Notes under the pieces: model-generated
What the model was told of the DNA's origin: nothing
Seen by the model: the letters and a program-made list of their open reading frames with translations, nothing else
The model's database searches: none
Program-made: the position numbers and the translations under genes
Assembly: GCA_963669155.1 (NCBI GenBank)
Contig: OZ022596.1
Span: 6,143,582 to 6,207,581 of the forward strand
Direction: 5' to 3'
From: Arbacia lixula
Lineage: Eukaryota > Echinodermata > Echinoidea > Arbacioida > Arbaciidae
DNA length: 64,000 nucleotides
In this document: positions 1,031-49,458 of the stretch, in pieces
Numbering within the stretch: position 1 is the stretch's first letter
How the letters are laid out: every line of letters begins with the position of its first letter

Positions 1031-1034
1031 TCTG

Positions 1035-5353: not shown

Positions 5354-5558
5354 AAAAATTAGATAAACAAACTAAAATTGAATGTCATGGTGAAATCTTG
5401 AGCATGTACTCACATGTACAAGGAAGAAAAGAGCAATATAATCCATTACATAAGCTACCTTTCCCAGTAATAATCAAACATATCTTGCATGCATACAACT
5501 ACAGATAAGTCTTCCAAACTGAAGACAGATATATTGAGTTGTAATTTTCAAGTTTTGC

Positions 5559-6113: not shown

Positions 6114-6210
6114 GACATGAAATGACTTTGTGACCATAAAAAATTTTTCCTAACATTTGAGACAAAATTACTAAATTTACAATGAGAAAAGAAATTAATA
6201 CTCAAATTCC

Positions 6211-8098: not shown

Positions 8099-8099
8099 A

Positions 8100-8545: not shown

Positions 8546-8700
8546 ATGGAGAGAGAGGGAGATGGAGGGAGAGGGAGAGAGAGGGAGGGAGAGGGAGAGG
8601 GAGAGAGAGGGAGAGAGAGGGAGAGGGAGAGAGAGGGAGAGAGAGAGAGAGAGGGAGAGAGAATGAGGGAGGGAGTGAGAGGGGGAGAGAGAGAAATAGA
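8546..8700. repeat. GA/GGGA purine microsatellite
   Basis: About 150 bp of almost pure A/G on the plus strand, built from GAGA and GGGAGA units. It generates overlapping Arg/Glu/Gly-rich ORFs on the plus strand and Ser/Leu/Pro-rich ORFs on the minus strand, which are low-complexity artefacts. It probably lies in or just beyond the 3' untranslated region of the minus-strand gene ending at 9197. Confidence 0.9.
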
Positions 8701-8775
8701 GAGCACATTGAAAGGGCTAGGCATGGGTGGGGTGAGAAAGAAGATATTATAGGAACAAAGTGGTTTGTGAAACGA

Positions 8776-9082
8776 GTCTCGCCTGATTAAGCGATCAATA
8801 AACAGTGCTGATTATTTTTCTTCAAATATCTGAAATGGTGCCGAGGTAACCTTTGACCTCATCAACACATGTGGTATTACCCAAGGATCATTTGTACCAA
8901 GTTTGATCACAAGTTATAAATTGTAAAATAATTTCTTCAATAAAGAAATGAGAGCAATTTAAACAAAAACTTTTTTGTAACAGACCAAAGGACTAAAAGA
9001 CCAACAGGAAAAGTGATTACTCACATAAATATAAAAATAAAAGTGATTACTAGGTCTCTGCTGAACTTTGTTCAGGCGAGAC
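8776..9082. mobile_element. Short GTCTCGCCTGA / TCAGGCGAGAC element
   Basis: An 11-bp perfect terminal inverted repeat (GTCTCGCCTGA at 8776 and TCAGGCGAGAC ending 9082) encloses about 285 bp including GAGGTAACCTTTGACCTC. The ends match the larger element at 4001-5353, so this looks like a deleted or single-unit member of that family. It lies about 115 bp downstream of the predicted stop codon of the minus-strand gene, so it may be transcribed as 3' UTR. Confidence 0.6.
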
Positions 9083-9196
9083 AAAAATGGAGGGGGATAG
9101 GAGAGGGTAAGAATAAGAGGGAGGTTAAATGAGAGACCCCATTCTGAGGTCCTAGCTTGGATCCTCCCAAGCGGTTTTTCGGCGGTGAACATTCTG

Positions 9197-9260
9197 TCAC
9201 TGCTTGGTGGATCGCATCCTTATGTCACTATCCCCATCTGAGATCTTCTTCTTCTCTTTC
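9197..9260 (-). CDS. Basigin/neuroplastin-like gene, last coding exon
   Basis: Read on the minus strand, a good acceptor (TGTGTATTTGCAG) precedes 64 bp of open frame ending in TGA at 9197-9199. The first base, G, completes an ATG codon begun in the upstream exon (9941-10066), so phases agree. The 20 residues after that Met are basic at the start and end (KEKKK then DIRMRSTKQ). Basigin and neuroplastin tails end in a comparable polar sequence with Arg-x-Arg near the C-terminus. The tail would be cytoplasmic. The homology call is by eye and rests mainly on the preceding exon. Too short to be found by ORF length. Confidence 0.6.
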
Positions 9261-9401
9261 CTGCAAATACACATATACAACGAAATGAGAGTTAAGTGTG
9301 TAACTTTACATTGTCCCCTCTCAAGGATAAGCTAACTAAAAGATCGGGTATATTGAGTGGAAGGGGTGCAGGGAGAGTGCAAGTTTGTAGGGATCTGTCC
9401 A

Positions 9402-9553
9402 TCTGTGCATAAAACCTACCATTGATGGTAACTTTGCTATCAAAGACAACTTCTTTGGAAAAGTTAATTTAGATTGGCTGTTGAGCGATGTTACCATGGT
9501 AGTTATCATTGATGGCAGAGGTTTATCATGGTAAGGCTTATGCGACAGGGCCC
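9402..9553. mobile_element. Foldback MITE (GCATAAAAC...GGGCCC family), copy 1
   Basis: This ~150-bp segment, starting 'GCATAAAACCTACCATTGATG' and ending 'CTTATGCGACAGGGCCC', aligns by eye with the reverse complement of 56563-56715. It has inverted ends (GCATAA...TTATGC) and lies in the 680-bp intron between the two basigin-like exons. No coding capacity. Confidence 0.65.
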
Positions 9554-9940
9554 TGGTTTGTGATCCCGTACTCAACTGTGGCATTTACAACCCAATGTTC
9601 CTTGTCCACTATCCTTTCATACTGGGCATATTGTACATACGTCAAACAACATTACACTTCAATAGTGATCACTAGTGGTCCTACTATGTTTTCTTTAAAA
9701 ATCAATAAATTGATTGGGTTCACAATGAAGTTATGAATGCAAATATAAAGAGGACCATAGAATATTCAAAGTCATAACTGTTTGGTTACTTATCTATTTT
9801 CCAACTAGCTACTAAGTGCACAGGATACTGGCAAAGGTAATGCCAGATTTCAGGGCTAGTCATAAGGCTCCTCTTCAAACTTCACACTGACGAATCACAA
9901 CACATATTCACTGATTGCTCTCGCGAGGGCGCACACTCAC

Positions 9941-10066
9941 ATGAGATCCTCGTCATCCTCCCCATAGTCCTCTTCCTTGCTGCACTTCTCATGGATGAAG
10001 ATGATGATGATTTGGATGATGACCGCGCTCACGATGCCAAGAACTGCCAAAGGCCTGTCAGACGAT
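9941..10066 (-). CDS. Basigin/neuroplastin-like gene, transmembrane exon
   Basis: On the minus strand a CT-rich acceptor tract ending CTCTCTCTCTAG is followed by 126 bp of open frame and a consensus donor (CTCAT|GTGAGT). Two bases of the first codon come from an upstream exon not located here. The product has a short polar start, a ~21-residue hydrophobic helix (LAVLGIVSAVIIQIIIIFI), then HEK and an acidic tail (EEDYGEDDEDL). Basigin and neuroplastin have the same order: LGIV-type helix, YEK at the inner face, then an Asp/Glu-rich tail. These family members are Ig-superfamily glycoproteins that chaperone monocarboxylate transporters and Ca2+ pumps. The Glu conserved inside the vertebrate helix is not seen here (VSAV instead of VAEV). 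If the intron is retained, a TGA follows immediately after DLM. The Ig-domain exons should lie at higher coordinates, beyond or within the satellite. Confidence 0.6.
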
Positions 10067-10262
10067 CTAGAGAGAGAGAGAGAGTCAACATACAATTAAC
10101 TCTCTTAGTCCTAAATGCAATAAACTATGTTATAATTCAACTAGGAATATTACTGTTTGGTACTGAGAGGGTTTTATATTCTGTTCACGCCAGAGCAAGA
10201 TTAGAGAAGAGCTGGTGTGAGGGGGAGGCACTTCTTTAAAGGCTTCTACAAAATACATGGAG
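10067..10262. other. Intron remnant between basigin-like exon and satellite
   Basis: Begins with the (GA)n tract that forms the minus-strand polypyrimidine tract. The remaining ~180 bp is unique sequence with no recognised exon. The G-rich minisatellite starts at about 10264. Confidence 0.5.
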
Positions 10263-10263
10263 G

Positions 10264-13200
10264 ACTATTTTCTACAAGGGATGGTGGGAAGGGGTGGTGG
10301 GAAGGGGTGGTGGGAAGGGGTGGTAGGAAGGGGTGGTGGGAAGGGGTGGTAGGAAGGGGTGGTGGGAAGGGGTGGTGAGAAGGGGTGGTAGGAAGGGGTG
10401 GTGAGAAAAGGTGGTGGGAAGGGGTGGTGAGAAGGGTGGTTGGAAGGAGTGGTGGGAAGGAGTGGTAGGAAGGGGTGGTAAGAAGGGGTGGTGAGAAGGG
10501 GTGGTAAGAAGGGGTGGTGGGTACAGGTGGTAAGAAGGGACGGTTGGAAGGGGTGGTGGGGAAGGGGTAGTGAGAAGGGGTGGTGGGTACAGGTGGTGAG
10601 AAGGGGTGGTGGGAAGTGTTAGTTGGAAGGGATGGTGGGAAGGGGTGGTGAGAAGGGGTGGTGGTGAGAAGGGGTGGTGGGAAGTGTTAGTTGGAAGGAA
10701 TGGTGGGAAGGGGTGGTGAGAAGGGGTGGTGAGAAGGGGTGGTGGGAAGGGGTTGTGAGAAGGGGTGGTGGGAAGGGATGGCTGGAATGGATGGTGGGAA
10801 TGGATGGTAGGAAGGAGTGTTAGGAAGGAGTGGTAGGAAGGGGTGGTGAGGAGGGGTGGTGAGAAGGGGTGGTAAGAAGGGGTGGTAAGAAGGGGTGGTA
10901 AGAAGGGGTGGTAAGAAGGGGTGGTGGGTACAGGTGGCGAGAAGGGACGGTTGGAAGGGGTGGTGGGGAAGGGGTAGTGAGAAGGGGTGGTGGGTACAGG
11001 TGGTGAGAAGGGGTGGTGGGAAGTGTTAGTTGGAAGGAATGGTGGGAAGGGGTGGTGAGAAGGGGTGGTGAGAAGGGGTGGTGGGAAGGGGTTGTGAGAA
11101 GGGGTGGTAGGAAGGGGTGGTTGGAGGGGCTGGTGGGAAGGGGTGGTGAGAAGGAGTGGTGGGAAGGGGTGGTGGGAAGGGATGGCTGGAATGGATGGTA
11201 GGAAGGGGTGGTTAGAAGGGGTGGTGGGAAGGGGTGGTGGGAAGGGATGGCTGGAATGGATGGTGGGAATGGATGGTAGGAAGGGGTGGTTGGAAGGGGT
11301 GGTAGGAAGGGGTGGTGAGAAGGGGTGGTGAGAAGGGGTGGTAAGAAGGGGTGGTGAGAAGGGGTGGTAAGAAGGGGTGGTAAGAAGGGGTGGTGGGTAC
11401 AGGTGGTGAAAAGGGACGGTTGGAAGGGGTGGTGGGGAAGGGGTAGTGAGAAGGGGTGGTGGTAAGGGTTGGTTGGAAGGGGTTGTGAGAAGGGGTGGTG
11501 GGAGGGGTGGTGGGAAGGGGTTGTGAGAAGGGGTGGTGGGAAGGGATGGCTGAAATGGATGGTGGGAATGGATGGTAGGAAGGAGTGGTAGGAAGGGGTG
11601 GTGAGGAGGGGTGGTGAGAAGGGGTGGTAAGAAGGGGTGGTAAGAAGGGGTGGTAAGAAGGGGTGGTGGGTACAGGTGGCGAGAAGGGACGGTTGGAAGG
11701 GGTGGTGGGGAAGGGGTAGTGAGAAGGGGTGGTGGGTACAGGTGGTGAGAAGGGGTGGTGGGAAGTGTTAGTTGGAAGGGATGGTGGGAAGGGGTGGTGA
11801 GAAGGGGTGGTGGTGAGAAGGGGTGGTGGGAAGTGTTAGTTGGAAGGAATGGTGGGAAGGGGTGGTGAGAAGGGGTGGTGAGAAGGGGTGGTGGGAAGGG
11901 GTTGTGAGAAGGGGTGGTGGGAAGGGATGGCTGGAATGGATGGTGGGAAGGGATGGTGGGAAGGGGTGGTGAGAAGGGGTGGTAGGAAGGGGTGGTTGGA
12001 GGGGCTGGTGGGAAGGGGTGGTGAGAAGGAGTGGTGGGAAGGGGTGGTGGGAAGGGATGGCTGGAATGGATGGTAGGAAGGGGTGGTGAGAAGGAGTGGT
12101 GGGAAGGGGTGGTGGGAAGGGATGGCTGGAATGGATGGTAGGAAGGGGTGGTTAGAAGGGGAAGTGGGAAGGGGTGGTGGGAAGGGATGGCTGGAATGGA
12201 TGGTGGGAATGGATGGTAGGAAGGGGTGGTTGGAAGGGGTGGTAGGAAGGGGTGGTGAGAAGGGGTGGTGAGAAGGGGTGGTGAGAAGGGGTGGTAAGAA
12301 GGGGTGGTGAGAAGGGGTGGTGGGTACAGGTGGCGAGAAGGGACGGTTGGAAGGGGTGGTGGGGAAGGGGTAGTGAGAAGGGGTGGTGGGTACAGGTGGT
12401 GAGAAGGGGTGGTGGGAAGTGTTAGTTGGAAGGAATGGTGGGAAGGGGTGGTGAGAAGGGGTGGTGAGAAGGGGTGGTGGGAAGGGGTTGTGAGAAGGGG
12501 TGGTGGGAAGGGATGGCTGGAATGGATGGTGGGAAGGGATGGTGGGAAGGGATGGTGGGAAGGGGTGGTGAGAAGGGGTGGTAGGAAGGGGTGGTTGGAG
12601 GGGCTGGTGGGAAGGGGTGGTGAGAAGGAGTGGTGGGAAGGGGTGGTGGGAAGGGATGGCTGGAATCGATGGTAGGAAGGGGTGGTTAGAAGGGGTGGTG
12701 GGAAGGGGTGGTAAGAAGGGGTGGTAAGAAGGGGTGGTAAGAAGGGGTGGTGGGTACAGGTGGCGAGAAGGGACGGTTGGAAGGGGTGGTGGGGAAGGGG
12801 TAGTGAGAAGGGGTGGTGGGTACAGGTGGTGAGAAGGGGTGGTGGGAAGTGTTAGTTGGAAGGAATGGTGGGAAGGGGTGGTGAGAAGGGGTGGTGAGAA
12901 GGGGTGGTGGGAAGGGGTTGTGAGAAGGGGTGGTAGGAAGGGGTGGTTGGAGGGGCTGGTGGGAAGGGGTGGTGAGAAGGAGTGGTGGGAAGGGGTGGTG
13001 GGAAGGGATGGCTGGAATGGATGGTAGGAAGGGGTGGTTAGAAGGGGTGGTGGGAAGGGGTGGTGGGAAGGGATGGCTGGAATGGATGGTGGGAATGGAT
13101 GGTAGGAAGGGGTGGTTGGAAGGGGTGGTAGGAAGGGGTGGTGAGAAGGGGTGGTGAGAAGGGGTGGTAAGAAGGGGTGGTGAGAAGGGGTGGTAAGAAG

Positions 13201-16200
13201 GGGTGGTAAGAAGGGGTGGTGGGTACAGGTGGTGAAAAGGGACGGTTGGAAGGGGTGGTGGGGAAGGGGTAGTGAGAAGGGGTGGTGGTAAGGGTTGGTT
13301 GGAAGGGGTTGTGAGAAGGGGTGGTGGGAGGGGTGGTGGGAAGGGGTTGTGAGAAGGGGTGGTGGGAAGGGATGGCTGAAATGGATGGTGGGAATGGATG
13401 GTAGGAAGGAGTGGTAGGAAGGGGTGGTGAGGAGGGGTGGTGAGAAGGGGTGGTAAGAAGGGGTGGTAAGAAGGGGTGGTAAGAAGGGGTGGTGGGTACA
13501 GGTGGCGAGAAGGGACGGTTGGAAGGGGTGGTGGGGAAGGGGTAGTGAGAAGGGGTGGTGGGTACAGGTGGTGAGAAGGGGTGGTGGGAAGTGTTAGTTG
13601 GAAGGGATGGTGGGAAGGGGTGGTGAGAAGGGGTGGTGGTGAGAAGGGGTGGTGGGAAGTGTTAGTTGGAAGGAATGGTGGGAAGGGGTGGTGAGAAGGG
13701 GTGGTGAGAAGGGGTGGTGGGAAGGGGTTGTGAGAAGGGGTGGTGGGAAGGGATGGCTGGAATGGATGGTGGGAAGGGATGGTGGGAAGGGGTGGTGAGA
13801 AGGGGTGGTAGGAAGGGGTGGTTGGAGGGGCTGGTGGGAAGGGGTGGTGAGAAGGAGTGGTGGGAAGGGGTAGTGGGAAGGGATGGCTGGAATGGATGGT
13901 AGGAAGGGGTGGTTAGAAGGGGTGGTGGGAAGGGGTGGTGGGAAAGGATGGCTGGAATGGATGGTGGGAATGGATGGTAGGAAGGGGTGGTTGGAAGGGG
14001 TGGTAGGAAGGGGTGGTGAGAAGGGGTGGTGAGAAGGGGTGGTGAGAAGGGGTGGTAAGAAGGGGTGGTGAGAAGGGGTGGTGGGTACAGGTGGCGAGAA
14101 GGGACGGTTGGAAGGGGTGGTGGGGAAGGGGTAGTGAGAAGGGGTGGTGGGTACAGGTGGTGAGAAGGGGTGGTGGGAAGTGTTAGTTGGAAGGAATGGT
14201 GGGAAGGGGTGGTGAGAAGGGGTGGTGAGAAGGGGTGGTGGGAAGGGGTTGTGAGAAGGGGTGGTGGGAAGGGATGGCTGGAATGGATGGTGGGAAGGGA
14301 TGGTGGGAAGGGGTGGTGAGAAGGGGTGGTAGGAAGGGGTGGTTGGAGGGGCTGGTGGGAAGGGGTGGTGAGAAGGAGTGGTGGGAAGGGGTGGTGGGAA
14401 GGGATGGCTGGAATGGATGGTAGGAAGGGGTGGTTAGAAGGGGTGGTGGGAAGGGGTGGTGGGAAGGGATGGCTGGAATGGATGGTGGGAATGGATGGTA
14501 GGAAGGGGTGGTTGGAAGGGGTGGTAGGAAGGGGTGGTGAGAAGGGGTGGTGAGAAGGGGTGGTAAGAAGGGGTGGTGAGAAGGGGTGGTAAGAAGGGGT
14601 GGTAAGAAGGGGTGGTGGGTACAGGTGGTGAGAAGGGACGGTTGGAAAAGTGGTGGGGAAGGGGTAGTGAGAAGGGGTGGTGGGAGGGGTGGTGAGAAGG
14701 GGTGGTGAGAAGGGGTGGTAAGAAGGGGTGGTAAGAAGGGGTGGTGGGTACAGGTGGTGAGAAGGAACGGTTGGAAGGGGTGGTGGGGAAGGGGTAGTGA
14801 GAAGGGGTGGTGGTAAGGGTTGGTTGGAAGGGGTTGTGAGAAGGGGTGGTGGGAGGGGTGGTGGGAAGGGGTTGTGAGAAGGGGTGGTGGGAAGGGATGG
14901 CTGGAATGGATGGTGGGAATGGATGGTAGGAAGGAGTGGTAGGAAGGGGTGGTGAGGAGGGGTGGTGAGAAGGGGTGGTAAGAAGGGGTGGTAAGAAGGG
15001 GTGGTAAGAAGGGGTGGTGGGTACAGGTGGCGAGAAGGGACGGTTGGAAGGGGTGGTGGGGAAGGGGTAGTGAGAAGGGGTGGTGGGTACAGGTGGTGAG
15101 AAGTGGTGGTGGGAAGTGTTAGTTGGAAGGAATGGTGGGAAGGGGTGGTGAGAAGGGGTGGTGGAAAGGGGTGGTTGAAAGGGGTGGTTGGAAGGGTTAG
15201 TGGGAAGGGGTTGTGAGAATGGGTGGTGAGAAGGGTTGGTGGGAAGGGGTTGTGAGAAGGGGTGGTGGGAAGGGATGGCTGGAATGGATGGTGGGAATGG
15301 ATGGTAGGAAGGGGTGGTGGGAAGGTGTGGTGGGGAATAGGTGGTTGAAAGGGGTGGTGGGAAAGAGTGGTGGGAAGGGGTGGTGGGTACAGGTGGTGAG
15401 AAGGGGTGATGGGTACAGGTGGTGATAAGAGGTGGTGCGAAGAGGTGGTGGGAAGAGGTGGTGGAAAGGGGTGGTGGAAAGGGGTGGTTGAAAGGGGTGG
15501 TTGGAAGGGTTGGTGGGAAGGGGTTGTGAGAATGGGTGGTGAGAAGGGTTGGTGGGAAGGGGTTGTGAGAAGGGGTGGTGGGTACAGGTGGTGAGAAGGG
15601 GTGGTGGGAAGTGTTAGTTGGAAGGAATGGTGGGAAGGGGTGGTGAGAAGGGGTGGTGAGAAGGGGTGATGGGTACAGGTGGTGATAAGAGGTGGTGCGA
15701 AGAGGTGGTGGGAAGAGGTGGTGGAAAGGGGTGGTTGAAAGGGGTGGTTGGAAGGGTTGGTGGGAAGGGGTTGTGAGAATGGGTGGTGAGAAGGGATGGT
15801 GGGAAGGGGTTGTGAGAAGGGGTGGTGGGAAGGGATGGCTGGAATGGATGGTGGGAATGGATGGTAGGAAGGGGTGGTGGGAAGGTGTGGTGGCGAAGAG
15901 GTGGTTGAAAGGGGTGGTGGGAAGGAGTGGTGGGAAGGGGTGGTGGGTACAGGTGGTGAGAAGGGGTGGTGGGAAGTGTTAGTTGGAAGGGATGGTGGGA
16001 AGGGGTGGTGAGAAGGGGTGGTGGTGACAAGGGGTGGTGGTGAGAAGGGGTGGTGGGTACAGGTGGTGATAAGAGGTGGTGCGAAGAGGTGGTGGGAAGA
16101 GGTGGTGGAAAGGGGTGGTTGAAAAGGGTGGTTGGAAGGGTTGGTGGGAAGGAGTTGTGAGAAGGGGTGGTAAGAAGGGTTGGTGGGAAGGGGTTGTGAG

Positions 16201-16605
16201 AAGGGGTGGTGGGAAGGGATGGCTGGAATGGATGGTGGGAAGGGATGGTGGGAAGGGGTGGTTGGAAAGGGTGGAGGGAAGGGGTGGTGGGAAGAGGTGG
16301 TTGAAAGGGGTGGTGGGAAGGGGCTGGTGAGAAGGGGTGGTGGGAAGGGATGGCTGGAATGGATGGTGGGAATGGATGATAGGAAGGGGTGGTTGGAAAG
16401 GGTGGAGGGAAGGGGTGGTGGGTACAGGTGGTGAGAAGGGGTGGTGCGAAGTGGTTGTAAGAAGGGGTTGTGAGAAGGGGTGGTAGGAAGGGGTGGTGAG
16501 AAGGGGTGGTGGGAAGGGGTGGTGGGAAGGGGTGGTGGGAAGGGGTGGTGGGAAGGGGTGGTAGGAGGGGATGGTGGGAAGGGGTGGTGGGAAGGGGTGG
16601 CTTGA
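10264..16605. repeat. 13-bp G-rich minisatellite (6.3 kb)
   Basis: The core unit is GGAAGGGGTGGTG (13 bp), with variants such as GAGAAGGGGTGGT, TAAGAAGGGGTGG, GGGTACAGGTGGT, GGAAGTGTTAGTT and GATGGCTGGAATG. The plus strand has almost no C. Because 13 is not a multiple of 3, any open frame repeats every 39 bp as a 13-residue peptide. This yields long spurious ORFs: Pro/Ser/Thr/His-rich on the minus strand (up to 1128 codons, 13662-17048) and Gly/Trp/Lys-rich on the plus strand. Blocks recur at an offset of 1,826 bp (11013/12839, 11104/12930, 11888/13714), with further offsets of 521 and 1,396 bp. Runs of GGGG, TGG and GGG make G-quadruplex formation plausible. Confidence 0.95.
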
Positions 16606-19600
16606 GGGTTAGAGGGTTGAGGGACAGGAGGGTAGAGTACAGAGGCACAGGAGGGTAGAGGATAGGACAGGAGGGGAGAGGGTAGAGGTACGCCCCTAGT
16701 AGGAGGGGAGAGGGTAGAGGTACGCCCTAGAAGGAAAAGAGGATAGAGCGTAGAAGGATGGGAAAGAAATGGAAAATGGAGAAATGAAAAAGCATATTTC
16801 ATGACACATAATATAGTCGACTTAGAATGTAACAGTATACAAAATGAAAGAGTAGAGTGTGGAAGGACTAGAGGGTAGGGCGTAGAAGGACAGGAGGGTA
16901 GAGCGCTGAGGGACAGGAAGAAGGAGGGTAGAGGTACGCCCCTAGTAGGAGGGGAGAGGGTAGAGGTACGCCCTAGAAGGAAGAGAGGGTAGAGCGTAGA
17001 AGGACAGGAAAGAAATGGAAAATGGAGAAATGAAAAAGCATATTTCATGACACATAATATAGTCGACTTAGTGTGTAAAAGTATACAAAATGAAAGAGTA
17101 GAGAGTGGAAGGACTAGAGGGTAGGGCGTAGAAGGATTGGAGGGTAGAGCGCAGAGGGACAGGAGAGTAGAGTGTGGAAGGACTAGAGGGTAGGGCGTAG
17201 AAGGATTGGAGGGTAGAGCGCAGAGGGACAGGAGGGGAGAGGGTAGAGGTACGCCCTAGAAGGAAGAGAGGGTAGAGCGTAGAAGGACGGGAAAGAAATG
17301 GAAAATGGAGAAATGAAAAAGCATATTTCATGAAACCTAATATAGTCGACTTGGTATGTAAAAGTATACAAAATGAAAGAGTAGAGTGTGGAAGGACTAG
17401 AGGGTAGGGCATAGAAGGACAGGAGGGTAGAGCGCAGAGGGACAGGAGGGGAGAGGGTAGAGGTACGCCCCTAGTAGGAGGGGAGAGGGTAGAGGTACGC
17501 CCTAGAAGGAAGAGAGGGTAGAGCGTAGAAGGATGGGAAAGAAATGAAAAATGGAGAAATGAAAAAGCATATTTCATGACACATAATATAGTCGACTTAG
17601 AATGTAAAAGTATACAAAATGAAAGAGTAGAGAGTAGAAGGACTAGAGGGTAGGGCGTAGAAGGACAGGAGGGTAGAGCGCTGACGGACAGGAGGGGAGA
17701 GGGTAGAGGTACGCCCCTAGTAGGAGGAAAGAGGGTAGAGGTACGCCCTAGTAGGAGGGGAGAGGGTAGAGGTACGCCCTAGAAGGAAGAGAGGGTTGGG
17801 CGTAGGACGGGAAAGAAATGGAAAATGGAGAAATGAAAAAGCATATTTCATGACACCTAATATAGTCGACTTGGTATGTAAAAGTATACAAAATGAAAGA
17901 GTAGAGTGTGGAAGGACTAGAGGGTAGGGCATAGAAGGACAGGAGGGTAGAGCGCAGAGGGACAGGAGGGGAGAGGGTAGAGGTACGCCCCTAGTAGGAG
18001 GGGAGAGGGTAGAGGTACGCCCTAGAAGGAAGAGAGGGTAGAGTGTAGAAGGATGGGAAAGAAATGGAAAATGGAGAAATGAAAAAGCATATTTCATGAC
18101 ACATAATATAGTCGACTTAGAATGTAACAGTATACAAAATGAAAGAGTAGAGTGTGGAAGGACTAGAGGGTAGGGCGTAGAAGGACAGGAGGGTAGAGCG
18201 CTGAGGGACAGGAGGGGAGAGGGTAGAGGTACGTCCCTAGTAGGAGGGGAGAGGGTAGAGGTACGCCCTAGAAGGAAGAGAGGGTAGAGCGTAGAAGGAT
18301 GGGAAAGAAATGGAAAATGGAGAAATGAAAAAGCATATTTCATGACACATAATATAGTCGACTTAGAATGTAAAAGTATACAAAATGAAAGAGTAGAGTG
18401 TGGAAGGACTAGAGGGTAGGGCGTAGAAGGACAGGAGGGTAGAGCGCTGAGGGACAGGAGGGGAGAGGGTAGAGGTACGCCCCTAGTAGGAGGGGAGAGG
18501 GTAGAGGTACGCCCTAGAAGGAAGAGAGGGTAGAGCGTAGAAGGACAGGAAAGAAATGGAAAATGGAGAAATGAAAAAGCATATTTCATGACACATAATA
18601 TAGTCGACTTAGTGTGTAAAAGTATACAAAATGAAAGAGTAGAGAGTGGAAGGACTAGAGGGTAGGGCGTAGAAGGATTGGAGGGTAGAGCGCAGAGGGA
18701 CAGGAGAGTAGAGTGTGGAAGGACTAGAGGGTAGGGCGTAGAAGGATTGGAGGGTAGAGCGCAGAGGGACAGGAGGGGAGAGGGTAGAGGTACGCCCTAG
18801 AAGGAAGAGAGGGTAGAGCGTAGAAGGACGGGAAAGAAATGGAAAATGGAGAAATGAAAAAGCATATTTCATGAAACCTAATATAGTCGACTTGGTATGT
18901 AACAGTATACAAAATGAAAGAGTAGAGTGTGGAAGGACTAGAGGGTAGGGCGTAGAAGGACAGGAGGGTAGAGCGCTGACGGACAGGAGGGGAGAGGGTA
19001 GAGGTACGCCCCTAGTAGGAGGAAAGAGGGTAGAGGTACGCCCTAGTAGGAGGGGAGAGGGTAGAGGTACGCCCTAGAAGGAAGAGAGGGTTGAGCGTAG
19101 GACGGGAAAGAAATGGAAAATGGAGAAATGAAAAAGCATATTTCATGACACCTAATATAGTCGACTTGGTATGTAAAAGTATACAAAATGAAAGAGTAGA
19201 GTGTGGAAGGACTAGAGGGTAGGGCATAGAAGGACAGGAGGGTAGAGCGCAGAGGGACAGGAGAGTAGAGTGTGGAAGTACTAGAGGGTAGGGCGTAGAA
19301 GGATTGGAGGGTAGAGCGCAGAGGGACAGGAGGGGAGAGGGTAGAGGTACGCCCTAGAAGGAAGAGAGGGTAGAGCGTAGAAGGACGGGAAAGAAATGGA
19401 AAATGGAGAAATGAAAAAGCATATTTCATGAAACCTAATATAGTCGACTTGGTATGTAAAAGTATACAAAATGAAAGAGTAGAGTGTGGAAGGACTAGAG
19501 GGTAGGGCATAGAAGGACAGGAGGGTAGAGCGCAGAGGGACAGGAGGGGAGAGGGTAGAGGTACGCCCCTAGTAGGAGGGGAGAGGGTAGAGGTACGCCC

Positions 19601-40600: not shown

Positions 40601-43600
40601 GAGGTACGCCCTAGTAGGAGGGGAGAGGGTAGAGGTACGCCCTAGAAGGAAGAGAGGGTTGAGCGTAGGACGGGAAAGAAATGGAAAATGGAGAAATGAA
40701 AAAGCATATTTCATGACACTTAATATAGTCGACTTGGTATGTAACAGTATACAAAATGAAAGAGTAGAATGTGGAAGGACTAGAGGGTAGGGCGTAGAAG
40801 GACAGGAGGGTAGAGCGCTGAGGGACAGGAGGGTAGAGCGCTGAGGGACAGGAGGGGAGAGGGTAGAGGTACGCCCCTAGTAGGAGGGGAGAGGGTAGAG
40901 GTACGCCCTAGAAGGAAGAGAGGGTAGAGCGTAGAAGGATGGGAAAGAAATGGAAAATGGAGAAATGAAAAAGCATATTTCATGACACATAATATAGTCG
41001 ACTTAGAATGTAACAGTATACAAAATGAAAGAGTAGAGTGTGGAAGGACTAGAGGGTAGGGCGTAGAAGGACAGGAGGGTAGAGCGCTGAGGGACAGGAG
41101 GGTAGAGCGCTGAGGGACAGGAGGGTAGAGCGCTGAGGGACAGGAGGGGAGAGGGTAGAGGTACGTCCCTAGTAGGAGGGGAGAGGGTAGAGGTACGCCC
41201 TAGAAGGAAGAGAGGGTAGAGCATAGAAGGATGGGAAAGAAATGGAAAATGGAGAAATTAAAAAGAATATTTCATGACACATAATATAGTCGACTTAGAA
41301 TGTAAAAGTATACAAAATGAAAGAGTAGAGAGTGGAAGGACTAGAGGGTAGGGCGTAGAAGGACAGGAGGGTAGAGCGCTGAGGGACAGGAGGGGAGAGG
41401 GTAGAGGTACGCCCCTAGTAGGAGGAAAGAGGGTAGAGGTACGCCCTAGTAGGAGGGGAGAGGGTAGAGGTACGCCCTAGAAGGAAGAGAGGGTAGAGCG
41501 TAGAAGGATGGGAAAGAAATGGAAAATGGAGAAATGAAAAAGCATATTTCATGACACTTAATATAGTCGACTTGGTATGTAAAAGTATACAAAATGAAAG
41601 AGTAGAGTGTGGAAGGACTAGAGGGTAGGGCATAGAAGGACAGGAGGGTAGAGCGCAGAGGGACAGGAGGGGAGAGGGTAGAGGTACGCCCCTAGTAGGA
41701 GGGGAGAGGGTAGAGGTACGCCCTAGAAGGAAGAGAGGGTAGAGCGTAGAAGGATGGGAAAGAAATGGAAAATGGAGAAATGAAAAAGCATATTTCATGA
41801 CACATAATATAGTCGACTTAGAATGTAAAAGTATACAAAATGAAAGAGTAGAGAGTGGAAGGACTAGAGGGTAGGGCGTAGAAGGACAGGAGGGTAGAGC
41901 GCAGAGGGACAGGAGGGGAGAGGGTAGAGGTACGCCCCTAGTAGGAGGGGAGAGGGTAGAGGTACGCCCTAGTAGGAGGGGAGAGGGTAGAGGTACGCCC
42001 TAGAAGGAAGAGAGGGTAGAGCGTAGAAGGATGGGAAAGAAATGGAAAATGGAGAAATGAAAAAGCATATTTCATGACACATAATATAGTCGACTTAGAA
42101 TGTAAAAGTATACAAAATGAAAGAGTAGAGAGTGGAAGGACTAGAGGGTAGGGCGTAGAAGGACAGGAGGGTAGAGCGCAGAGGGACAGGAGGGGAGAGG
42201 GTAGAGGTACGCCCCTAGTAGGAGGGGAGAGGGTAGAGGTACGCCCTAGTAGGAGGGGAGAGGGTAGAGGTACGCCCTAGAAGGAAGAGAGGGTAGAGCG
42301 TAGAAGGATGGGAAAGAAATGGAAAATGGAGAAATGAAAAAGCATATTTCATGACACATAATATAGTCGACTTAGAATGTAAAAGTATACAAAATGAAAG
42401 AGTAGAGAGTGGAAGGACTAGAGGGTAGGGCGTAGAAGGACAGGAGGGTAGAGCGCAGAGGGACAGGAGGGGAGAGGGTAGAGGTACGCCCCTAGTAGGA
42501 GGGGAGAGGGTAGAGGTACGCCCTAGTAGGAGGGGAGAGGGTAGAGGTACGCCCTAGAAGGAAGAGAGGGTAGAGCGTAGAAGGATGGGAAAGAAATGGA
42601 AAATGGAGAAATGAAAAAGCATATTTCATGACACATAATATAGTCGACTTAGAATGTAAAAGTATACAAAATGAAAGAGTAGAGAGTGGAAGGACTAGAG
42701 GGTAGGGCGTAGAAGGACAGGAGGGTAGAGCGCTGAGGGACAGGAGGGGAGAGGGTAGAGGTACGCCCCTAGTAGGAGGGGAGAGGGTAGAGGTACGCCC
42801 TAGAAGGAAGAGAGGGTAGAGCGTAGAAGGATGGGAAAGAAATGGAAAATGGAGAAATGAAAAAGCATATTTCATGACACATAATATAGTCGACTTAGAA
42901 TGTAACAGTATACAAAATGAAAGAGTAGAGTGTGGAAGGACTAGAGGGTAGGGCGTAGAAGGACAGGAGGGTAGAGCGCTGAGGGACAGGAGGGTAGAGC
43001 GCTGAGGGACAGGAGGGTAGAGCGCTGAGGGACAGGAGGGGAGAGGGTAGAGGTACGTCCCTAGCAGGAGGGGAGAGGGTAGAGGTACGCCCTAGAAGGA
43101 AGAGAGGGTAGAGCATAGAAGGATGGGAAAGAAATGGAAAATGGAGAAATTAAAAAGAATATTTCATGACACATCATATAGTCGACTTAGAATGTAAAAG
43201 TATACAAAATGAAAGAGTAGAGAGTGGAAGGACTAGAGGGTAGGGCGTAGAAGGACAGGAGGGTAGAGCGCTGAGGGACAGGAGGGGAGAGGGTAGAGGT
43301 ACGCCCTAGTAGGAGGGGAGAGGGTAGAGGTACGCCCTAGAAGGAAGAGAGGGTTGAGCGTAGGACGGGAAAGAAATGGAAAATGGAGAAATGAAAAAGC
43401 ATATTTCATGACACCTAATATAGTCGACTTGGTATGTAAAAGTATACAAAATGAAAGAGTAGAGTGTGGAAGGACTAGAGGGTAGGGCATAGAAGGACAG
43501 GAGGGTAGAGCGCAGAGGGACAGGAGGGGAGAGGGTAGAGGTACGCCCCTAGTAGGAGGGGAGAGGGTAGAGGTACGCCCTAGAAGGAAGAGAGGGTAGA

Positions 43601-46600
43601 GCGTAGAAGGATGGGAAAGAAATGGAAAATGGAGAAATGAAAAAGCATATTTCATGACACATAATATAGTCGACTTAGAATGTAAAAGTATACAAAATGA
43701 AAGAGTAGAGTGTGGAAGGACTAGACGGTAAGGCGTAGAAGGACAGGAGGGTAGAGCGCTGAGGGACAGGAGGGGAGAGGGTAGAGGTACGCCCCTAGTA
43801 GGAGGGGAGAGGGTAGAGGTACGCCCTAGTAGGAGGGGAGAGGGTAGAGGTACGCCCTAGAAGGAAGAGAGGGTAGAGCGTAGAAGGATGGGAAAGAAAT
43901 GGAAAATGGAGAAATGAAAAAGCATATTTCATGACACATAATATAGTCGACTTAGAATGTAAAAGTATACAAAATGAAAGAGTAGAGAGTGGAAGGACTA
44001 GAGGGTAGGGCGTAGAAGGACAGGAGGGTAGAGCGCTGAGGGACAGGAGGGGAGAGGGTAGAGGTACGCCCCTAGTAGGAGGAAAGAGGGTAGAGGTACG
44101 CCCTAGTAGGAGGGGAGAGGGTAGAGGTACGCCCTAGAAGGAAGAGAGGGTTGAGCGTAGGACGGGAAAGAAATGGAAAATGGAGAAATGAAAAAGCATA
44201 TTTCATGACACCTAATATAGTCGACTTAGAATGTAAAAGTATACAAAATGAAAGAGTAGAGAGTGGAAGGACTAGAGGGTAGGGCGTAGAAGGACAGGAG
44301 GGTAGAGCGCAGAGGGACAGGAGGGGAGAGGGTAGAGGTACGCCCCTAGTAGGAGGGGAGAGGGTAGAGGTACGCCCTAGTAGGAGGGGAGAGGGTAGAG
44401 GTACGCCCTAGAAGGAAGAGAGGGTAGAGCGTAGAAGGATGGGAAAGAAATGGAAAATGGAGAAATGAAAAAGCATATTTCATGACACATAATATAGTCG
44501 ACTTAGAATGTAAAAGTATACAAAATGAAAGAGTAGAGAGTGGAAGGACTAGAGGGTAGGGCGTAGAAGGACAGGAGGGTAGAGCGCTGAGGGACAGGAG
44601 GGGAGAGGGTAGAGGTACGCCCCTAGTAGGAGGGGAGAGGGTAGAGGTACGCCCTAGAAGGAAGAGAGGGTAGAGCGTAGAAGGATGGGAAAGAAATGGA
44701 AAATGGAGAAATGAAAAAGCATATTTCATGACACATAATATAGTCGACTTAGAATGTAACAGTATACAAAATGAAAGAGTAGAGTGTGGAAGGACTAGAG
44801 GGTAGGGCGTAGAAGGACAGGAGGGTAGAGCGCTGAGGGACAGGAGGGTAGAGCGCTGAGGGACAGGAGGGTAGAGCGCTGAGGGACAGGAGGGGAGAGG
44901 GTAGAGGTACGTCCCTAGTAGGAGGGGAGAGGGTAGAGGTACGCCCTAGAAGGAAGAGAGGGTAGAGCATAGAAGGATGGGAAAGAAATGGAAAATGGAG
45001 AAATGAAAAAGCATATTTCATGACACATAATATAGTCGACTTAGAATGGAAAAGTATACAAAATGAAAGAGTAGAGAGTGGAAGGACTAGAGGGTAGGGC
45101 GTAGAAGGACAGGAGGGTAGAGCGCTGAGGGACAGGAGGGGAGAGGGTAGAGGTACGCCCCTAGTAGGAGGGGAGAGGGTAGAGGTACGCCCTAGAAGGA
45201 AGAGAGGGTAGAGCGTAGAAGGATGGGAAAGAAATGGAAAATGGAGAAATGAAAAAGCATATTTCATGACACATAATATAGTCGACTTAGAATGTAAAAG
45301 TATACAAAATGAAAGAGTAGAGTGTGGAAGGACTAGACGGTAAGGCGTAGAAGGACAGGAGGGTAGAGCGCTGAGGGACAGGAGGGGAGAGGGTAGAGGT
45401 ACGCCCCTAGTAGGAGGGGAGAGGGTAGAGGTACGCCCTAGTAGGAGGGGAGAGGGTAGAGGTACGCCCTAGAAGGAAGAGAGGGTAGAGCGTAGAAGGA
45501 TGGGAAAGAAATGGAAAATGGAGAAATGAAAAAGCATATTTCATGACACATAATATAGTCGACTTAGAATGTAAAAGTATACAAAATGAAAGAGTAGAGA
45601 GTGGAAGGACTAGAGGGTAGGGCGTAGAAGGACAGGAGGGTAGAGCGCTTAGGGACAGGAGGGGAGAGGGTAGAGGTACGCCCCTAGTAGGAGGAAAGAG
45701 GGTAGAGGTACGCCCTAGTAGGAGGGGAGAGGGTAGAGGTACGCCCTAGAAGGAAGAGAGGGTTGAGCGTAGGACGGGAAAGAAATGGAAAATGGAGAAA
45801 TGAAAAAGCATATTTCATGACACATAATATAGTCGACTTAGAATGTAAAAGTATACAAAATGAAAGAGTAGAGAGTGGAAGGACTAGAGGGTAGGGCGTA
45901 GAAGGACAGGAGGGTAGAGCGCTGAGGGACAGGAGGGGAGAGGGTAGAGGTACGCCCCTAGTAGGAGGAAAGAGGGTAGAGGTACGCCCTAGTAGGAGGG
46001 GAGAGGGTAGAGGTACGCCCTAGAAGGAAGAGAGGGTTGAGCGTAGGACGGGAAAGAAATGGAAAATGGAGAAATGAAAAAGCATATTTCATGACACTTA
46101 ATATAGTCGACTTGGTATGTAAAAGTATACAAAATGAAAGAGTAGAGTGTGGAAGGACTAGAGGGTAGGGCATAGAAGGACAGGAGGGTAGAGCGCAGAG
46201 GGACAGGAGGGGAGAGGGTAGAGGTACGCCCCTAGTAGGAGGGGAGAGGGTAGAGGTACGCCCTAGAAGGAAGAGAGGGTAGAGCGTAGAAGGATGGGAA
46301 AGAAATGGAAAATGGAGAAATGAAAAAGCATATTTCATGACACATAATATAGTCGACTTAGAATGTAAAAGTATACAAAATGAAAGAGTAGAGAGTGGAA
46401 GGACTAGAGGGTAGGGCGTAGAAGGACAGGAGGGTAGAGCGCAGAGGGACAGGAGGGGAGAGGGTAGAGGTACGTCCCTAGTAGGAGGGGAGAGGGTAGA
46501 GGTACGCCCTAGAAGGAAGAGAGGGTAGAGCGTAGAAGGATGGGAAAGAAATGGAAAATGGAGAAATGAAAAAGCATATTTCATGACACATAATATAGTC

Positions 46601-48613
46601 GACTTAGAATGTAAAAGTATACAAAATGAAAGAGTAGAGAGTGGAAGGACTAGAGGGTAGGGCGTAGAAGGACAGGAGGGTAGAGCGCAGAGGGACAGGA
46701 GGGGAGAGGGTAGAGGTATGCCCCTAGTAGGAGGGGAGAGGGTAGAGGTACGCCCTAGAAGGAAGAGAGGGTAGAGCGTAGAAGGATGGGAAAGAAATGG
46801 AAAATGGAGAAATGAAAAAGCATATTTCATGACACATAATATAGTCGACTTAGAATGTAACAGTATACAAAATGAAAGAGTAGAGTGTGGAAGGACTAGA
46901 GGGTAGGGCGTAGAAGGACAGGAGGGTAGAGCGCTGAGGGACAGGAGGGGAGAGGGTAGAGGTACGCCCCTAGTAGGAGGGGAGAGGGTAGAGGTACGCC
47001 CTAGTAGGAGGGGAGAGGGTAGAGGTACGCCCTAGAAGGAAGAGAGGGTAGAGCGTAGAAGGATGGGAAAGAAATGGAAAATGGAGAAATGAAAAAGCAT
47101 ATTTCATGACACATAATATAGTCGACTTAGAATGTAAAAGTATACAAAATGAAAGAGTAGAGAGTGGAAGGACTAGAGGGTAGGGCGTAGAAGGACAGGA
47201 GGGTAGAGCGCTGAGGGACAGGAGGGGAGAGGGTAGAGGTACGCCCCTAGTAGGAGGAAAGAGGGTAGAGGTACGCCCTAGTAGGAGGGGAGAGGGTAGA
47301 GGTACGCCCTAGAAGGAAGAGAGGGTTGAGCGTAGGACGGGAAAGAAATGGAAAATGGAGAAATGAAAAAGCATATTTCATGACACATAATATAGTCGAC
47401 TTAGAATGTAACAGTATACAAAATGAAAGAGTAGAGTGTGGAAGGACTAGAGGGTAGGGCGTAGAAGGACAGGAGGGTAGAGCGCTGAGGGACAGGAGGG
47501 GAGAGGGTAGAGGTACGCCCCTAGTAGGAGGGGAGAGGGTAGAGGTACGCCCTAGTAGGAGGGGAGAGGGTAGAGGTACGCCCTAGAAGGAAGAGAGGGT
47601 AGAGCGTAGAAGGATGGGAAAGAAATGGAAAATGGAGAAATGAAAAAGCATATTTCATGACACATAATATAGTCGACTTAGAATGTAAAAGTATACAAAA
47701 TGAAAGAGTAGAGAGTGGAAGGACTAGAGGGTAGGGCGTAGAAGGACAGGAGGGTAGAGCGCTGAGGGACAGGAGGGGAGAGGGTAGAGGTACGCCCCTA
47801 GTAGGAGGAAAGAGGGTAGAGGTACGCCCTAGTAGGAGGGGAGAGGGTAGAGGTACGCCCTAGAAGGAAGAGAGGGTTGAGCGTAGGACGGGAAAGAAAT
47901 GGAAAATGGAGAAATGAAAAAGCATATTTCATGACACTTAATATAGTCGACTTGGTATGTAAAAGTATACAAAATGAAAGAGTAGAGAGTGGAAGGACTA
48001 GAGGGTAGGGCGTAGAAGGACAGGAGGGTAGAGCGCAGAGGGACAGGAGGGGAGAGGGTAGAGGTACGCCCCTAGTAGGAGGGGAGAGGGTAGAGGTACG
48101 CCCTAGTAGGAGGGGAGAGGGTAGAGGTACGCCCTAGAAGGAAGAGAGGGTAGAGCGTAGAAGGATGGGAAAGAAATGGAAAATGGAGAAATGAAAAAGC
48201 ATATTTCATGACACATAATATAGTCGACTTAGAATGTAAAAGTATACAAAATGAAAGAGTAGAGAGTGGAAGGACTAGAGGGTAGGGCGTAGAAGGACAG
48301 GAGGGTAGAGCGCTGAGGGACAGGAGGGGAGAGGGTAGAGGTACGCCCCTAGTAGGAGGGGAGAGGGTAGAGGTACGCCCTAGTAGGAGGGGAGAGGGTA
48401 GAGGTACGCCCTAGAAGGAAGAGAGGGTAGAGCGTAGAAGGATGGGAAAGAAATGGAAAATGGAGAAATGAAAAAGCATATTTCATGACACATAATATAG
48501 TCGACTTAGAATGTAAAAGTATACAAAATGAAAGAGTAGAGAGTGGAAGGACTAGAGGGTAGGGCGTGGAAGGACAGGAGGGTAGAGCACTGACAGGAGG
48601 GGAGAGGGTATAC
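16606..48613. repeat. ~270-bp satellite array with higher-order repeats (32 kb)
   Basis: About 118 units, each with a conserved AT-rich core (GAAAAAGCATATTTCATGACA, then TATAGTCGACTT and AGTATACAAAATGAAAGAGTAG) and a variable A/G-rich body. Unit length varies from roughly 245 to 325 bp. The variation comes from internal tandem sub-repeats: a 23-bp block (AGGAGGGTAGAGCGCTGAGGG plus two bases) present once to three times, and a 32/33-bp block ending TACGCCC(C)TAG present once to three times. The extra C toggles the minus-strand frame and explains the many short repeated ORFs beginning MKYAFSFLHF. A SalI site (GTCGAC) occurs in nearly every unit; it is lost at about 36921. No independent gene is seen inside. 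Copy number depends on the assembly. Confidence 0.97.
23053..35235. repeat. 4,325-bp higher-order repeat blocks (16 units each)
   Basis: Landmark units recur at an exact offset of 4,325 bp (23392/27717, 24153/28478, 25330/29655, 26327/30652, 26994/31319), giving two complete 16-unit blocks: 23053-27377 and 27378-31702. The third block follows at offset 3,782, which is 543 bp (two units) shorter. From block 3 to block 4 the offset is 5,203 = 3,782 + 1,421, due to an extra 1,421-bp (five-unit) duplication (34434 vs 35855). Blocks differ by only occasional single bases. The pattern continues less regularly to about 46 kb. Confidence 0.9.
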
Positions 48614-48960
48614 GAATGTGCGATATGTTTAAATGAGCAATATTCTCTAAAAGTTAATCATTAATCTTCAATCCAAAAAAAAAAAATTTAAAGAGCATAA
48701 TATTGCTAATTTGTGGGTGAAATTTCAGTATTTTACCTATTCATCTAGGTATGAAAATATTTAAAAGAAAGCAAGGGGGCCGGTTTGAGGCACCCATATC
48801 ATACGTACCAACTTACCAAGCCCAAGGCAGGAAGCCTGGCCAAAGCCATCATCTTTTTTTCGATGTCACAAATGGCACCCCCATGCATTTTTCAAAACAA
48901 CCCCGAATCTTCATTGAAGATGGAAGGTCCTCCACTCATCCACAATGGCTGGTTATGGAT
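48614..48960. other. Satellite-to-unique junction, non-coding
   Basis: The satellite stops abruptly after a partly degenerate unit (TAGAGCACTGACAGG, then GAGGGTATACGAATG at about 48603-48617). Unique AT-rich DNA with an A run (about 48677-48687) follows. An 81-codon ORF at 48751-48996 has no recognisable features and is not called as a gene. Confidence 0.6.
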
Positions 48961-49458
48961 GTCATAACGAATTCCATGGAATATCTAACACGATGAAAGC
49001 GACGGCCTGCAAAAGAGACGGTGCAGTTCCATGTGCTCGAGCTAGCGTGCAGTGTTATGCATGGAGGAGTGGAAGTGCGCGCGCGCGCGTGTACCTATGT
49101 ATTATGCATGAGTCTCGTGAATATGCAAATCGTGTTAAATATTCATGTACCTCTGCCCTCTCCCATTTAGCCGACCCCGTGCTACACTTATTGTAGCGAG
49201 CAGCTGACGCTGAATGAATGCATGCAGCGCGCATGTGTGTGCCTACCCTTGTACGCTGCCGCGGAGCCGCTAGGCGCCTGTGTTACCGGCCTGAGCTGAG
49301 CTGAGTGAGTGAGCCGAGTACACTCGTTCGAGGCGAAGGATACGGTTTTATTCTCTACTCTCCGATCAATTTATATCCCTTCTAACTCTGTTACTTGTTA
49401 GTAAAGGGGTGAATAAGATTTCTATTGTACTAAAATAGATCTAGATTTCATAATCACA
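48961..49458 (+). promoter_or_regulatory. CpG-richer 5' region of the trihelix gene
   Basis: CpG dinucleotides are clearly denser here than in the flanks, including an alternating (CG)n run at 49077-49088. An octamer motif ATGCAAAT lies at about 49124, and GAGCTGAGCTGAGTGAGTGAG at about 49290-49310. No clear TATA box. The start codon at 49459 has the context CACAATGCC, with A at -3 relative to ATG. A promoter and 5' UTR role is inferred from position. Confidence 0.4.

What the first reader, a model, noticed from the sequence alone, without database searches (positions are those of the whole stretch)
9197..48613. 38-kb double satellite where a basigin-like gene's upstream intron should be
The two minus-strand exons at 9197-9260 and 9941-10066 join in phase and encode a helix plus acidic tail like basigin/neuroplastin. 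The helix exon starts with a split codon behind a strong acceptor, so at least one more exon must lie at higher coordinates. Only ~190 bp of unique DNA separates it from 38 kb of tandem repeat. If the gene is intact, its transcript crosses the whole array as C/U-rich RNA. Otherwise the satellite has cut the gene from its ectodomain.
Basis: partly seen in the sequence, partly recalled or inferred. Interest (0 to 1): 0.8.

Follow-up and report, generated by a model that had tools for sequence, protein, structure and literature searches.

The report
Giant jumping element carrying gene-born satellite
The 38-kb repeat and the basigin-like exons beside it are not a gene with a huge intron: both are cargo of a very large DNA transposon with about two dozen copies in this genome, and one of its two satellites appears to have grown from a short tract in an intron of the real basigin gene.

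Summary
The exons and double satellite are real, but they are not part of a local gene. The basigin-like 3' end was found 27 times in this 607-Mb genome. One copy, on contig C3, is the intact-looking gene with Ig exons. The other 26, the window included, join intron 3 directly to the 13-bp array, and 25 of those share a 1-base frameshift. Ig2/Ig3 exons match well only on C3. The block lies in a DNA transposon with terminal inverted repeats, 46 bp where measured. Seventeen end pairs span 18.8-52.4 kb; one pair is doubtful. The right end is base-exact in 10 of 10 copies read, each with a different flank; in the window it is base 49178. A 28-mer of the array occurs 94 times: 93 in element copies or pieces, once in C3's intron just before the Ig2 exon. 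So the 13-bp satellite most likely grew from the parent gene's splice-acceptor tract. A second captured piece has an ALS2CR8/CaRF domain. The satellite-bearing arm varies from 4.7 to 39 kb. Target-site duplications, transposase and superfamily remain unknown.

The parts
1..49178 (-). Portion of the transposon copy that lies in the window (its left end lies outside); orientation given by the captured gene fragment
   Evidence: win 1-1000 in 24 copies, window included, at 97-100%; win 1001-4000 at the same loci, wholly or partly; right terminus at 49178
49133..49178 (-). Right terminal inverted repeat, 46 bp, 5'-GGGGTCGGCTAAATGGGAGAGGGCAGAGG... reading inward
   Evidence: 8 of 17 left ends were among the scored matches and align to query 304-349 = 46 bp at 100%; 20-nt and 40-nt patterns, 0 hits in reversed control
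48614..49132 (-). Right subterminal segment, shared by the copies, not seen inverted at left ends among the scored matches; contains a dispersed ~170-bp repeat (about 48637-48804)
16601..48613 (.). ~246-bp higher-order satellite (23-bp subunits plus an AT-rich landmark; 277 bp is the commonest landmark spacing)
   Evidence: TRF; landmark spacing; the same repeat lies inverted about 1.05-1.78 kb left of the window
10276..16600 (-). 13-bp satellite (sense strand CCCACCACCCCTT), inferred expansion of the basigin intron tract before the Ig2 exon
   Evidence: TRF; 28-mer shared only by element copies/pieces and C3:1794544-1794571
2394..10275 (-). Captured fragment of the C3 basigin locus (intron 3 tail, TM exon, tail exon, 3' flank; C3 about 1795984-1801214), with later insertions
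   Evidence: blastn to C3, 84.6-91.6% identity by piece
9941..10066 (-). Relic of the transmembrane exon, frameshifted by one base against C3, in the same way in 25 of 27 copies
   Evidence: alignment
9197..9260 (-). Relic of the cytoplasmic tail exon with stop codon
   Evidence: C3 counterpart C3:1797067-1797129
1942..2393 (.). 452-bp segment of unknown origin between the ~300-bp-repeat unit and the C3 piece
   Evidence: no diverged relative passes win 1941; C3 homology starts at win 2394
1..1941 (.). Older repeat unit made of ~300-bp direct repeats (1068-1896), with inverted counterparts left of the window; its own end is at 1941
   Evidence: nine listed matches of diverged relatives end at 1941 and none of them passes it; C65 (94-96%, no TM exon found) does; relatives at 78-88%; self-repeats; L022 and L037

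Best explanation
The region is one copy of a giant DNA transposon with 46-bp terminal inverted repeats and no transposase recognised in the parts read. It moves a dead 3' piece of the host basigin gene, flanked by satellites. Shown: a locus like C3's basigin supplied the stretch from intron 3 to about 4 kb past the stop. The piece is joined to a 13-bp array whose unit matches the C3 tract in front of the Ig2 exon. All 26 copies have that joint, and 25 share a frameshift. Copies end base-exactly at a terminal repeat. Inferred: a template switch or deletion at a short match removed Ig2, Ig3 and most of intron 3 (about 1.4 kb) and placed the intron's CT tract beside the TM exon inside the transposon. 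The tract then expanded into the 13-bp satellite. The element spread through an unknown transposase, while its repeat-rich arms kept changing length by unequal exchange or replication slippage; the window copy has the longest arm found. Transcription across the array is not needed for any of this.
For: 27 TM-exon and 27 tail-exon matches. C3 gene: Ig2 to tail matches neuroplastin at 4.7e-22 and basigin at 2.8e-19. Ig2/Ig3 on C3 only, but for two weak hits. Corresponding joint in 26 of 26 non-C3 copies, nine of them (window included) a few bases shorter. Shared frameshift in 25 of 27 aligned copies. Right end exact with a different flank in 10 of 10 copies read. TIR 20-mer: 52 hits, 0 in reversed control. 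40-mer: 49 hits, 0 in control, both ends of all 17 pairs with 0-1 mismatch. TIR length 46 bp at the 8 left ends scored. 28-mer: 94 hits, 88 in TM-bearing copies, 5 in other element pieces, 1 in C3's intron, 0 in reversed control. Closely related copies with very different arm lengths: window 39.2 kb, C12 23.7, C10 18.0, C184 13.4.
Against: Of 26 copies, 17 have both ends, 7 have one (the window among them: right only) and 2 (C11, C223) have none in the pattern searches; gaps and contig edges explain some but not all. The C2:2352020-2404383 pair (52.4 kb) has no right subterminal hit among the scored candidates. No transposase and no superfamily was identified. Only short stretches of the left arms were read. 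Arm lengths include copy-specific inserts (C144 upstream sequence matches no other copy) and depend on assembly quality. The C3 tract holds only about two 13-bp units beside an 11-bp minisatellite, so its role as seed rests on uniqueness and position.
Confidence: 0.88

Rival explanations
1. A working basigin-like gene whose Ig exons lie beyond the array, so its transcript crosses 38 kb of satellite.
For: Intact splice sites and an open joined frame; homology to basigin.
Against: Ig2/Ig3 found on C3 only, but for two weak hits not on C21; the TM exon is frameshifted against C3; the same joint of array and fragment recurs in 25 other places; the element ends at 49178 with a terminal repeat.
Confidence: 0.01
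2. A segmental duplication (duplicon) spread by recombination between chromosomes rather than by transposition.
For: Large mosaic units; copies on 17 of the contigs C1-C21; small contigs may be haplotypes; one doubtful TIR pair and nine copies without both ends found.
Against: Base-exact right end in 10 of 10 copies with unrelated flanks; matching inverted ends; flanking DNA at these ends is not shared.
Confidence: 0.06
3. A Helitron-type rolling-circle element captured the gene piece, introns included.
For: Capture of a genomic fragment with introns; insertions resembling Helitron-related pearl elements (resemblance recalled) seem common here.
Against: Both ends carry an inverted repeat starting GGGG; Helitrons are defined by non-inverted ends (recalled).
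Confidence: 0.02
4. The transposon reading is right, but the 13-bp satellite did not start from the basigin intron; the C3 match arose by convergence or later sequence exchange.
For: CT-rich, low-complexity sequence; only about two units in C3, next to a different 11-bp minisatellite.
Against: The 28-mer is found in 607 Mb only in element copies/pieces and at this one intron, in gene-sense orientation, on the gene the element captured, at the edge of the deleted stretch.
Confidence: 0.1

Closest known systems
Multicopy Pack-TIRs of animals, notably Ssk-FB4 of Drosophila (PMC8277862; abstract, sections 7 and 9 and search passages read)
   Same: TIR DNA element carrying a host gene piece, several genomic places, repeat-rich arms; template switching proposed there for capture.
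   Different: That survey took only inner lengths of 100-5000 bp and found 4 multicopy cases in 100 animals (the frog example has three copies; Ssk-FB4 has three loci, one doubled); here 17 end pairs of 19-52 kb, a gene-derived satellite and pieces of probably two genes.
Tetris foldback transposon and its TIR-220 satellite, D. virilis (PMC4079207; abstract and section 20 read)
   Same: Apparently non-autonomous TIR element whose internal tandem repeats grew into satellite arrays.
   Different: In Tetris the repeats were already part of the element; here the 13-bp repeat is traced to a captured host intron. TIRs here are 46 bp, with inverted 246-bp arrays further in.
Turmoil-1 of C. elegans (PMC2572040; start of abstract in a listing only)
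   Same: Animal transposon holding two protein-coding sequences.
   Different: There the sequences lie inside the inverted repeats; here they lie in the core of an element with satellites.
Satellite-like arrays in oyster Helentrons (PMC7492417; title and start of abstract in a listing only)
   Same: Tandem arrays spread by a non-autonomous element in a marine invertebrate.
   Different: Other element class; the listing speaks of short arrays and states no gene origin of the repeat.
Basigin/neuroplastin family
   Same: C3 gene: Ig domains, LAALWPFLGIVSEV helix, acidic tail.
   Different: The window fragment has no Ig exon, is frameshifted and has lost the conserved Pro and Glu of the helix.

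Membership tests
Pack-TIR (gene-capturing TIR transposon) | Terminal inverted repeats at both ends | tested here: met
   17 plus/minus pairs, paired by me from adjacency; 46 bp at 8 left ends; one pair doubtful; window copy: right end only
Pack-TIR (gene-capturing TIR transposon) | Host gene fragment with an identifiable parent elsewhere | tested here: met
   parent C3 about 1795984-1801214
Pack-TIR (gene-capturing TIR transposon) | Several copies with distinct insertion flanks | tested here: met
   10 of 10 right flanks read differ
Pack-TIR (gene-capturing TIR transposon) | Target-site duplications | not tested
Pack-TIR (gene-capturing TIR transposon) | Non-autonomous (no transposase) | tested here: inconclusive
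   frames of at least 40 aa in window 1-10280 show no recognisable transposase by eye, no family search was run on them; left arms mostly unread
Foldback element (Tetris/FB4 type) | Long inverted arms made of tandem repeats | tested here: inconclusive
   246-bp array inverted on the left in the two copies read that far, C21 window and C183, but the right subterminal 519 bp was not seen inverted; TIR itself 46 bp
Helitron | No TIRs, rolling-circle ends | tested here: not met
   inverted ends
Basigin/neuroplastin gene (window copy) | Ig domains plus helix in one open frame | tested here: not met
   Ig2/Ig3 only on C3; frameshift; Ig1 not searched genome-wide
Basigin/neuroplastin gene (C3 copy) | Ig domains, WPFLGIV..E helix, acidic tail | tested here: met
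piggyBac, Tc1/mariner, Harbinger superfamilies | Fixed target next to the end (TTAA, TA, TWA; recalled) | tested here: not met
   ten one-sided flanks show no such shared start, read by eye; assumes the end is where likeness stops
hAT superfamily | CA start of the TIR and 8-bp target of the type nTnnnnAn (recalled) | tested here: inconclusive
   the end reads GGGGTCGGC without CA; T at place 2 in 3 of 10 flanks, A at place 7 in 2 of 10, by eye

The most novel reading that the evidence does not exclude
A traceable birth of satellite DNA: the polypyrimidine tract before one exon of basigin was captured by a giant foldback-like TIR transposon, was freed from splicing constraint by loss of the adjoining Ig exons, expanded into kilobases of 13-bp satellite, and has been carried to most chromosomes by recent, possibly continuing transposition, with the satellite-bearing arm changing length by up to tens of kilobases between copies whose gene fragments differ by under 0.5%.
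Probability: 0.65. Interest if true: 0.82.

Novelty: new variant of a known kind. Interest (0 to 1): 0.72.

Why it matters
Where satellites come from is usually lost. Here the likely seed (one intron tract), the capture joint, an early in-frame copy (C11) and about two dozen later copies all survive in one genome. That makes satellite birth and array growth datable and testable. It also shows that gene-capturing TIR transposons in animals can be several times larger than a 100-genome survey looked for (inner limit 5 kb in PMC8277862), and that multi-exon 'genes' next to satellites can be transposon cargo that misleads annotation.

Tried and rejected
G-quadruplex role of the G-rich 13-bp array: motifs are fewer than in base-shuffled sequence (26 against a mean of 69.3 in 10276-16600), so no claim is made. 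An early depth profile suggested that the unit stopped at the array edge; this came from the HSP limit and was corrected by masking and by the genome search. Apparent array ends in L012, L014 and L033 are assembly gaps. Centromere reading (about one copy per chromosome): dropped, because several contigs have two or three copies, others none, and the ends are transposon-like. Helitron reading: dropped after the TIRs appeared. Pfam on the 62-aa C-terminus: no family. Papers with basigin, neuroplastin and echinoderm together: none; on basigin in invertebrates gave nothing of use. No title describing this element is among the rows listed by paper searches (1 of 1; 8 of 8; 10 of 20; 6 of 6; 10 of 45; 10 of 215; 10 of 22). 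Source of the ALS2CR8 block: DNA search of L027:1300-3992 did not complete.
Full report
WHAT WAS CHECKED. TRF confirms a 13-bp array at 10276-16600 and a ~246-bp array at 16647-48610. The two minus-strand exons are as described and join in phase. The joined 62 residues resemble basigin (E 9.5e-4) and neuroplastin (E 4.3e-3). The window is C21:6143582-6207581 of an unnamed 607-Mb assembly in 590 contigs. From memory its size would suit the bat star Patiria miniata; no call names the species.

NOT ONE GENE BUT A REPEAT. The protein search found 27 TM-exon and 27 tail-exon matches, one beside the other (counts are lower bounds). They lie on C3 (the parent), on 17 of the other contigs C1-C21, and on four small contigs. 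I fetched about 10 kb around the 26 other than the window (6.2 kb for one). The 13-bp array sits directly upstream in 26 of 26 non-C3 copies, the window included. The joint corresponds in all; nine, the window among them, are a few bases shorter there. Copies on C10, C19 and C184 are 99.4-99.8% identical to the window over 7.4-9.0 kb, part of the array included.

THE PARENT GENE. C3 holds an intact-looking gene on its plus strand: an Ig1 exon near 1786826, Ig2 at 1794573-1794857 and Ig3 at 1795190-1795498, TM exon at 1796193-1796330 (L034:4894-5031) and tail exon at 1797067-1797129. All three Ig stretches pass Pfam Ig cut-offs. Ig2 through the tail matches neuroplastin at 4.7e-22 and basigin at 2.8e-19, including the LAALWPFLGIV..E helix. 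No signal-peptide exon was sought. In the whole genome Ig2/Ig3 match well only on C3; the two other hits at E <= 0.01 are weak (34% and 27%) and lie on C12 and C1, away from any copy. Ig1 was compared only with the stretches held. The window's exons thus have no matching ectodomain to be spliced to.

THE COPIES ARE DEAD. Of 27 aligned TM exons, 25, the window among them, lack the same single base relative to C3. C11 keeps the reading frame. All 26 copies lost the helix proline, and 25 of 26 its glutamate; C5 keeps the glutamate codon but has a stop further on. The gene-fragment tree places C11 next to C3 and then the other 25 (87/87); 12 of 23 inner forks are weak. Mean p-distances are C3 to the 25: 9.8%; C11 to the 25: 2.8%; among the 25: 1.1%, maximum 2.2%. 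Some small contigs (C144, C183, C184, C223) may be haplotypes, so independent insertions may number a little below 26.

IT IS A TRANSPOSON. In the search with window 48614-49200, 20 other strong matches end near window base 49178: 12 exactly there, 8 within the next 20 bases (40 of 876 candidates were scored). In 10 of 10 copies read, the sequence ...CCCATTTAGCCGACCCC is followed by unrelated DNA. The inward 20-mer GGGGTCGGCTAAATGGGAGA occurs 52 times at up to 2 mismatches, 0 in the reversed control. The first 40 nt occur 49 times at up to 3 mismatches, again 0 in control. By adjacency I paired 34 of the 52 into 17 elements around basigin copies, spanning 18.8-52.4 kb with median 30.0. For 16 of these the right subterminal segment was also seen; the 52.4-kb C2 pair is doubtful. 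Of the 26 copies 17 thus have both ends, 7 one end (C6, C9:1.2 Mb, C16, C19, C144, C183 and the window) and 2 none (C11, C223). The other hits include a pair on C15 without basigin and several unpaired ends. Eight left ends were among the scored matches, and all share exactly 46 bp with the right end. The one-sided flanks show no shared TTAA, TA or TWA. Target-site duplications could not be read.

ANATOMY. In gene orientation: 46-bp TIR; 519-bp subterminal segment; 246-bp array; in 10 copies so far a 2.7-kb block, absent from the window; 13-bp array; basigin fragment; 452 bp of unknown origin; ~300-bp repeats; 246-bp array again, inverted (seen in the two copies read that far, the window's left neighbour and C183); left end. 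Copies differ: C144 has at least 4 kb upstream of a short array that matches no other copy, and C9:16.8 Mb has ~300-bp repeats on that side too. The 2.7-kb block holds two exon-like pieces that together match ALS2CR8/CaRF, PF15299, E 1.4e-14 (I joined the pieces), so a second gene was probably captured; its parent was not found because that search did not complete. The C3-derived part is C3 about 1795984-1801214, equal to window 2394-10275. Window 3981-5354 and 7475-8104 are absent at those points in C3 and in many copies, and similar sequence occurs elsewhere in L016, L027 and L009. They look like later insertions of tandem-repeat elements, resembling pearl-type elements from memory.

WHERE THE 13-BP SATELLITE CAME FROM. 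The C3 intron before Ig2 ends in a CT-rich tract closing with ACCCCTTCTCACCACCCCTTCCTACCAC|AG. That 28-mer was searched exactly in the whole genome: 94 hits, 0 in the reversed control. Of these, 88 lie in TM-bearing copies, 5 in other element pieces (C144 second element 3, C237 1, C11:22.945 Mb 1), and 1 in this C3 intron. Of the 26 copies, 24 hold at least one; C16 (gap) and C223 (contig edge) hold none. In the copies the array is followed at once by the intron-3 sequence next to the TM exon. The simplest history is loss of about 1.4 kb between the tract and intron 3 at a short match, then expansion. Direction from gene to element follows because the element's basigin copy is partial and, but for C11, frameshifted, while C3's is whole. 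That the C3 motif is the seed rather than a chance likeness is inference.

ARM LENGTH. From TM exon to right end the window copy measures 39.2 kb, nearly all of it array; the 16 well-paired copies measure 4.7-23.7 kb and the doubtful one 37.4. Within the group C21 window, C10, C12, C184 (terminal branches 0-0.2%, fork 84/76, within a six-row group at 99/96) the values are 39.2, 18.0, 23.7 and 13.4 kb. Only the window's arm was read in full, so that array length changes faster than point mutations accumulate is inferred; copy-specific inserts or collapsed assembly could account for part of it.

MECHANISM AND COMPARISON. It works like an animal Pack-TIR. [quoted passage not shown] That survey limited inner length to 5 kb and found four multicopy cases in 100 animals. 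Satellites arising inside a foldback transposon are known from Tetris (PMC4079207, abstract and section 20 read), but there from repeats that the element already had. No title about an element of this size, or about a satellite seeded by a captured splice-acceptor tract, is among the rows listed by searches; not all hits were listed, and the library lacks most subscription papers.

VERDICT. Observation confirmed; gene-with-giant-intron reading contradicted; replaced by a giant gene-capturing TIR transposon whose 13-bp satellite most likely grew from the captured gene's own intron.

Noticed in passing
window 49459-49935 (+): Open frame with a Myb/SANT-like domain (PF13837, E 7.7e-11) starting about 280 bp beyond the transposon's right end; the element may have landed in this gene's promoter.
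   Followed up: partly
window 61653-62915 (+): Single open frame of 421 aa: signal-like start, weak V-set Ig (E 4.8e-4, below Pfam cut-off), transmembrane-like stretch and tyrosine-rich tail, by eye; looks like a single-exon Ig receptor.
   Followed up: partly
window 51148-52721: About 5 direct copies of a 294-bp unit at ~98% identity, with a ~70-bp inverted piece at 51080-51150.
   Followed up: no
window 50580-51000: High-copy dispersed repeat: 20 listed hits at 93-96% over this end of the query, from a first look of 2240 candidates.
   Followed up: no
window 4096-5250 and 7534-7845: 157-bp and 172-bp tandem repeats next to GACG/GGAC microsatellites inside mobile-looking insertions.
   Followed up: partly
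right flanks of ten copies (window 49179 on; L024, L038-L045): The seventh base outside the element end is C in 7 of 10 flanks (counted by eye): possibly a target preference, possibly chance.
   Followed up: no
C144:24551-24648: Two element ends face each other 18 bp apart, so two copies seem to have inserted side by side in opposite orientation.
   Followed up: no
C15:19749003-19759570: 10.6-kb relative with both TIRs (2 mismatches each) and a right subterminal 73% alike, no basigin found: candidate older or autonomous element.
   Followed up: no
C1:35024656-35033559: Four units about 2.77 kb apart, each with the transposon's right subterminal segment at 81-84%.
   Followed up: no
window 53278-54633 (+): 451-codon open frame without any Pfam match, its start repeated at 52863-53053.
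   Followed up: no
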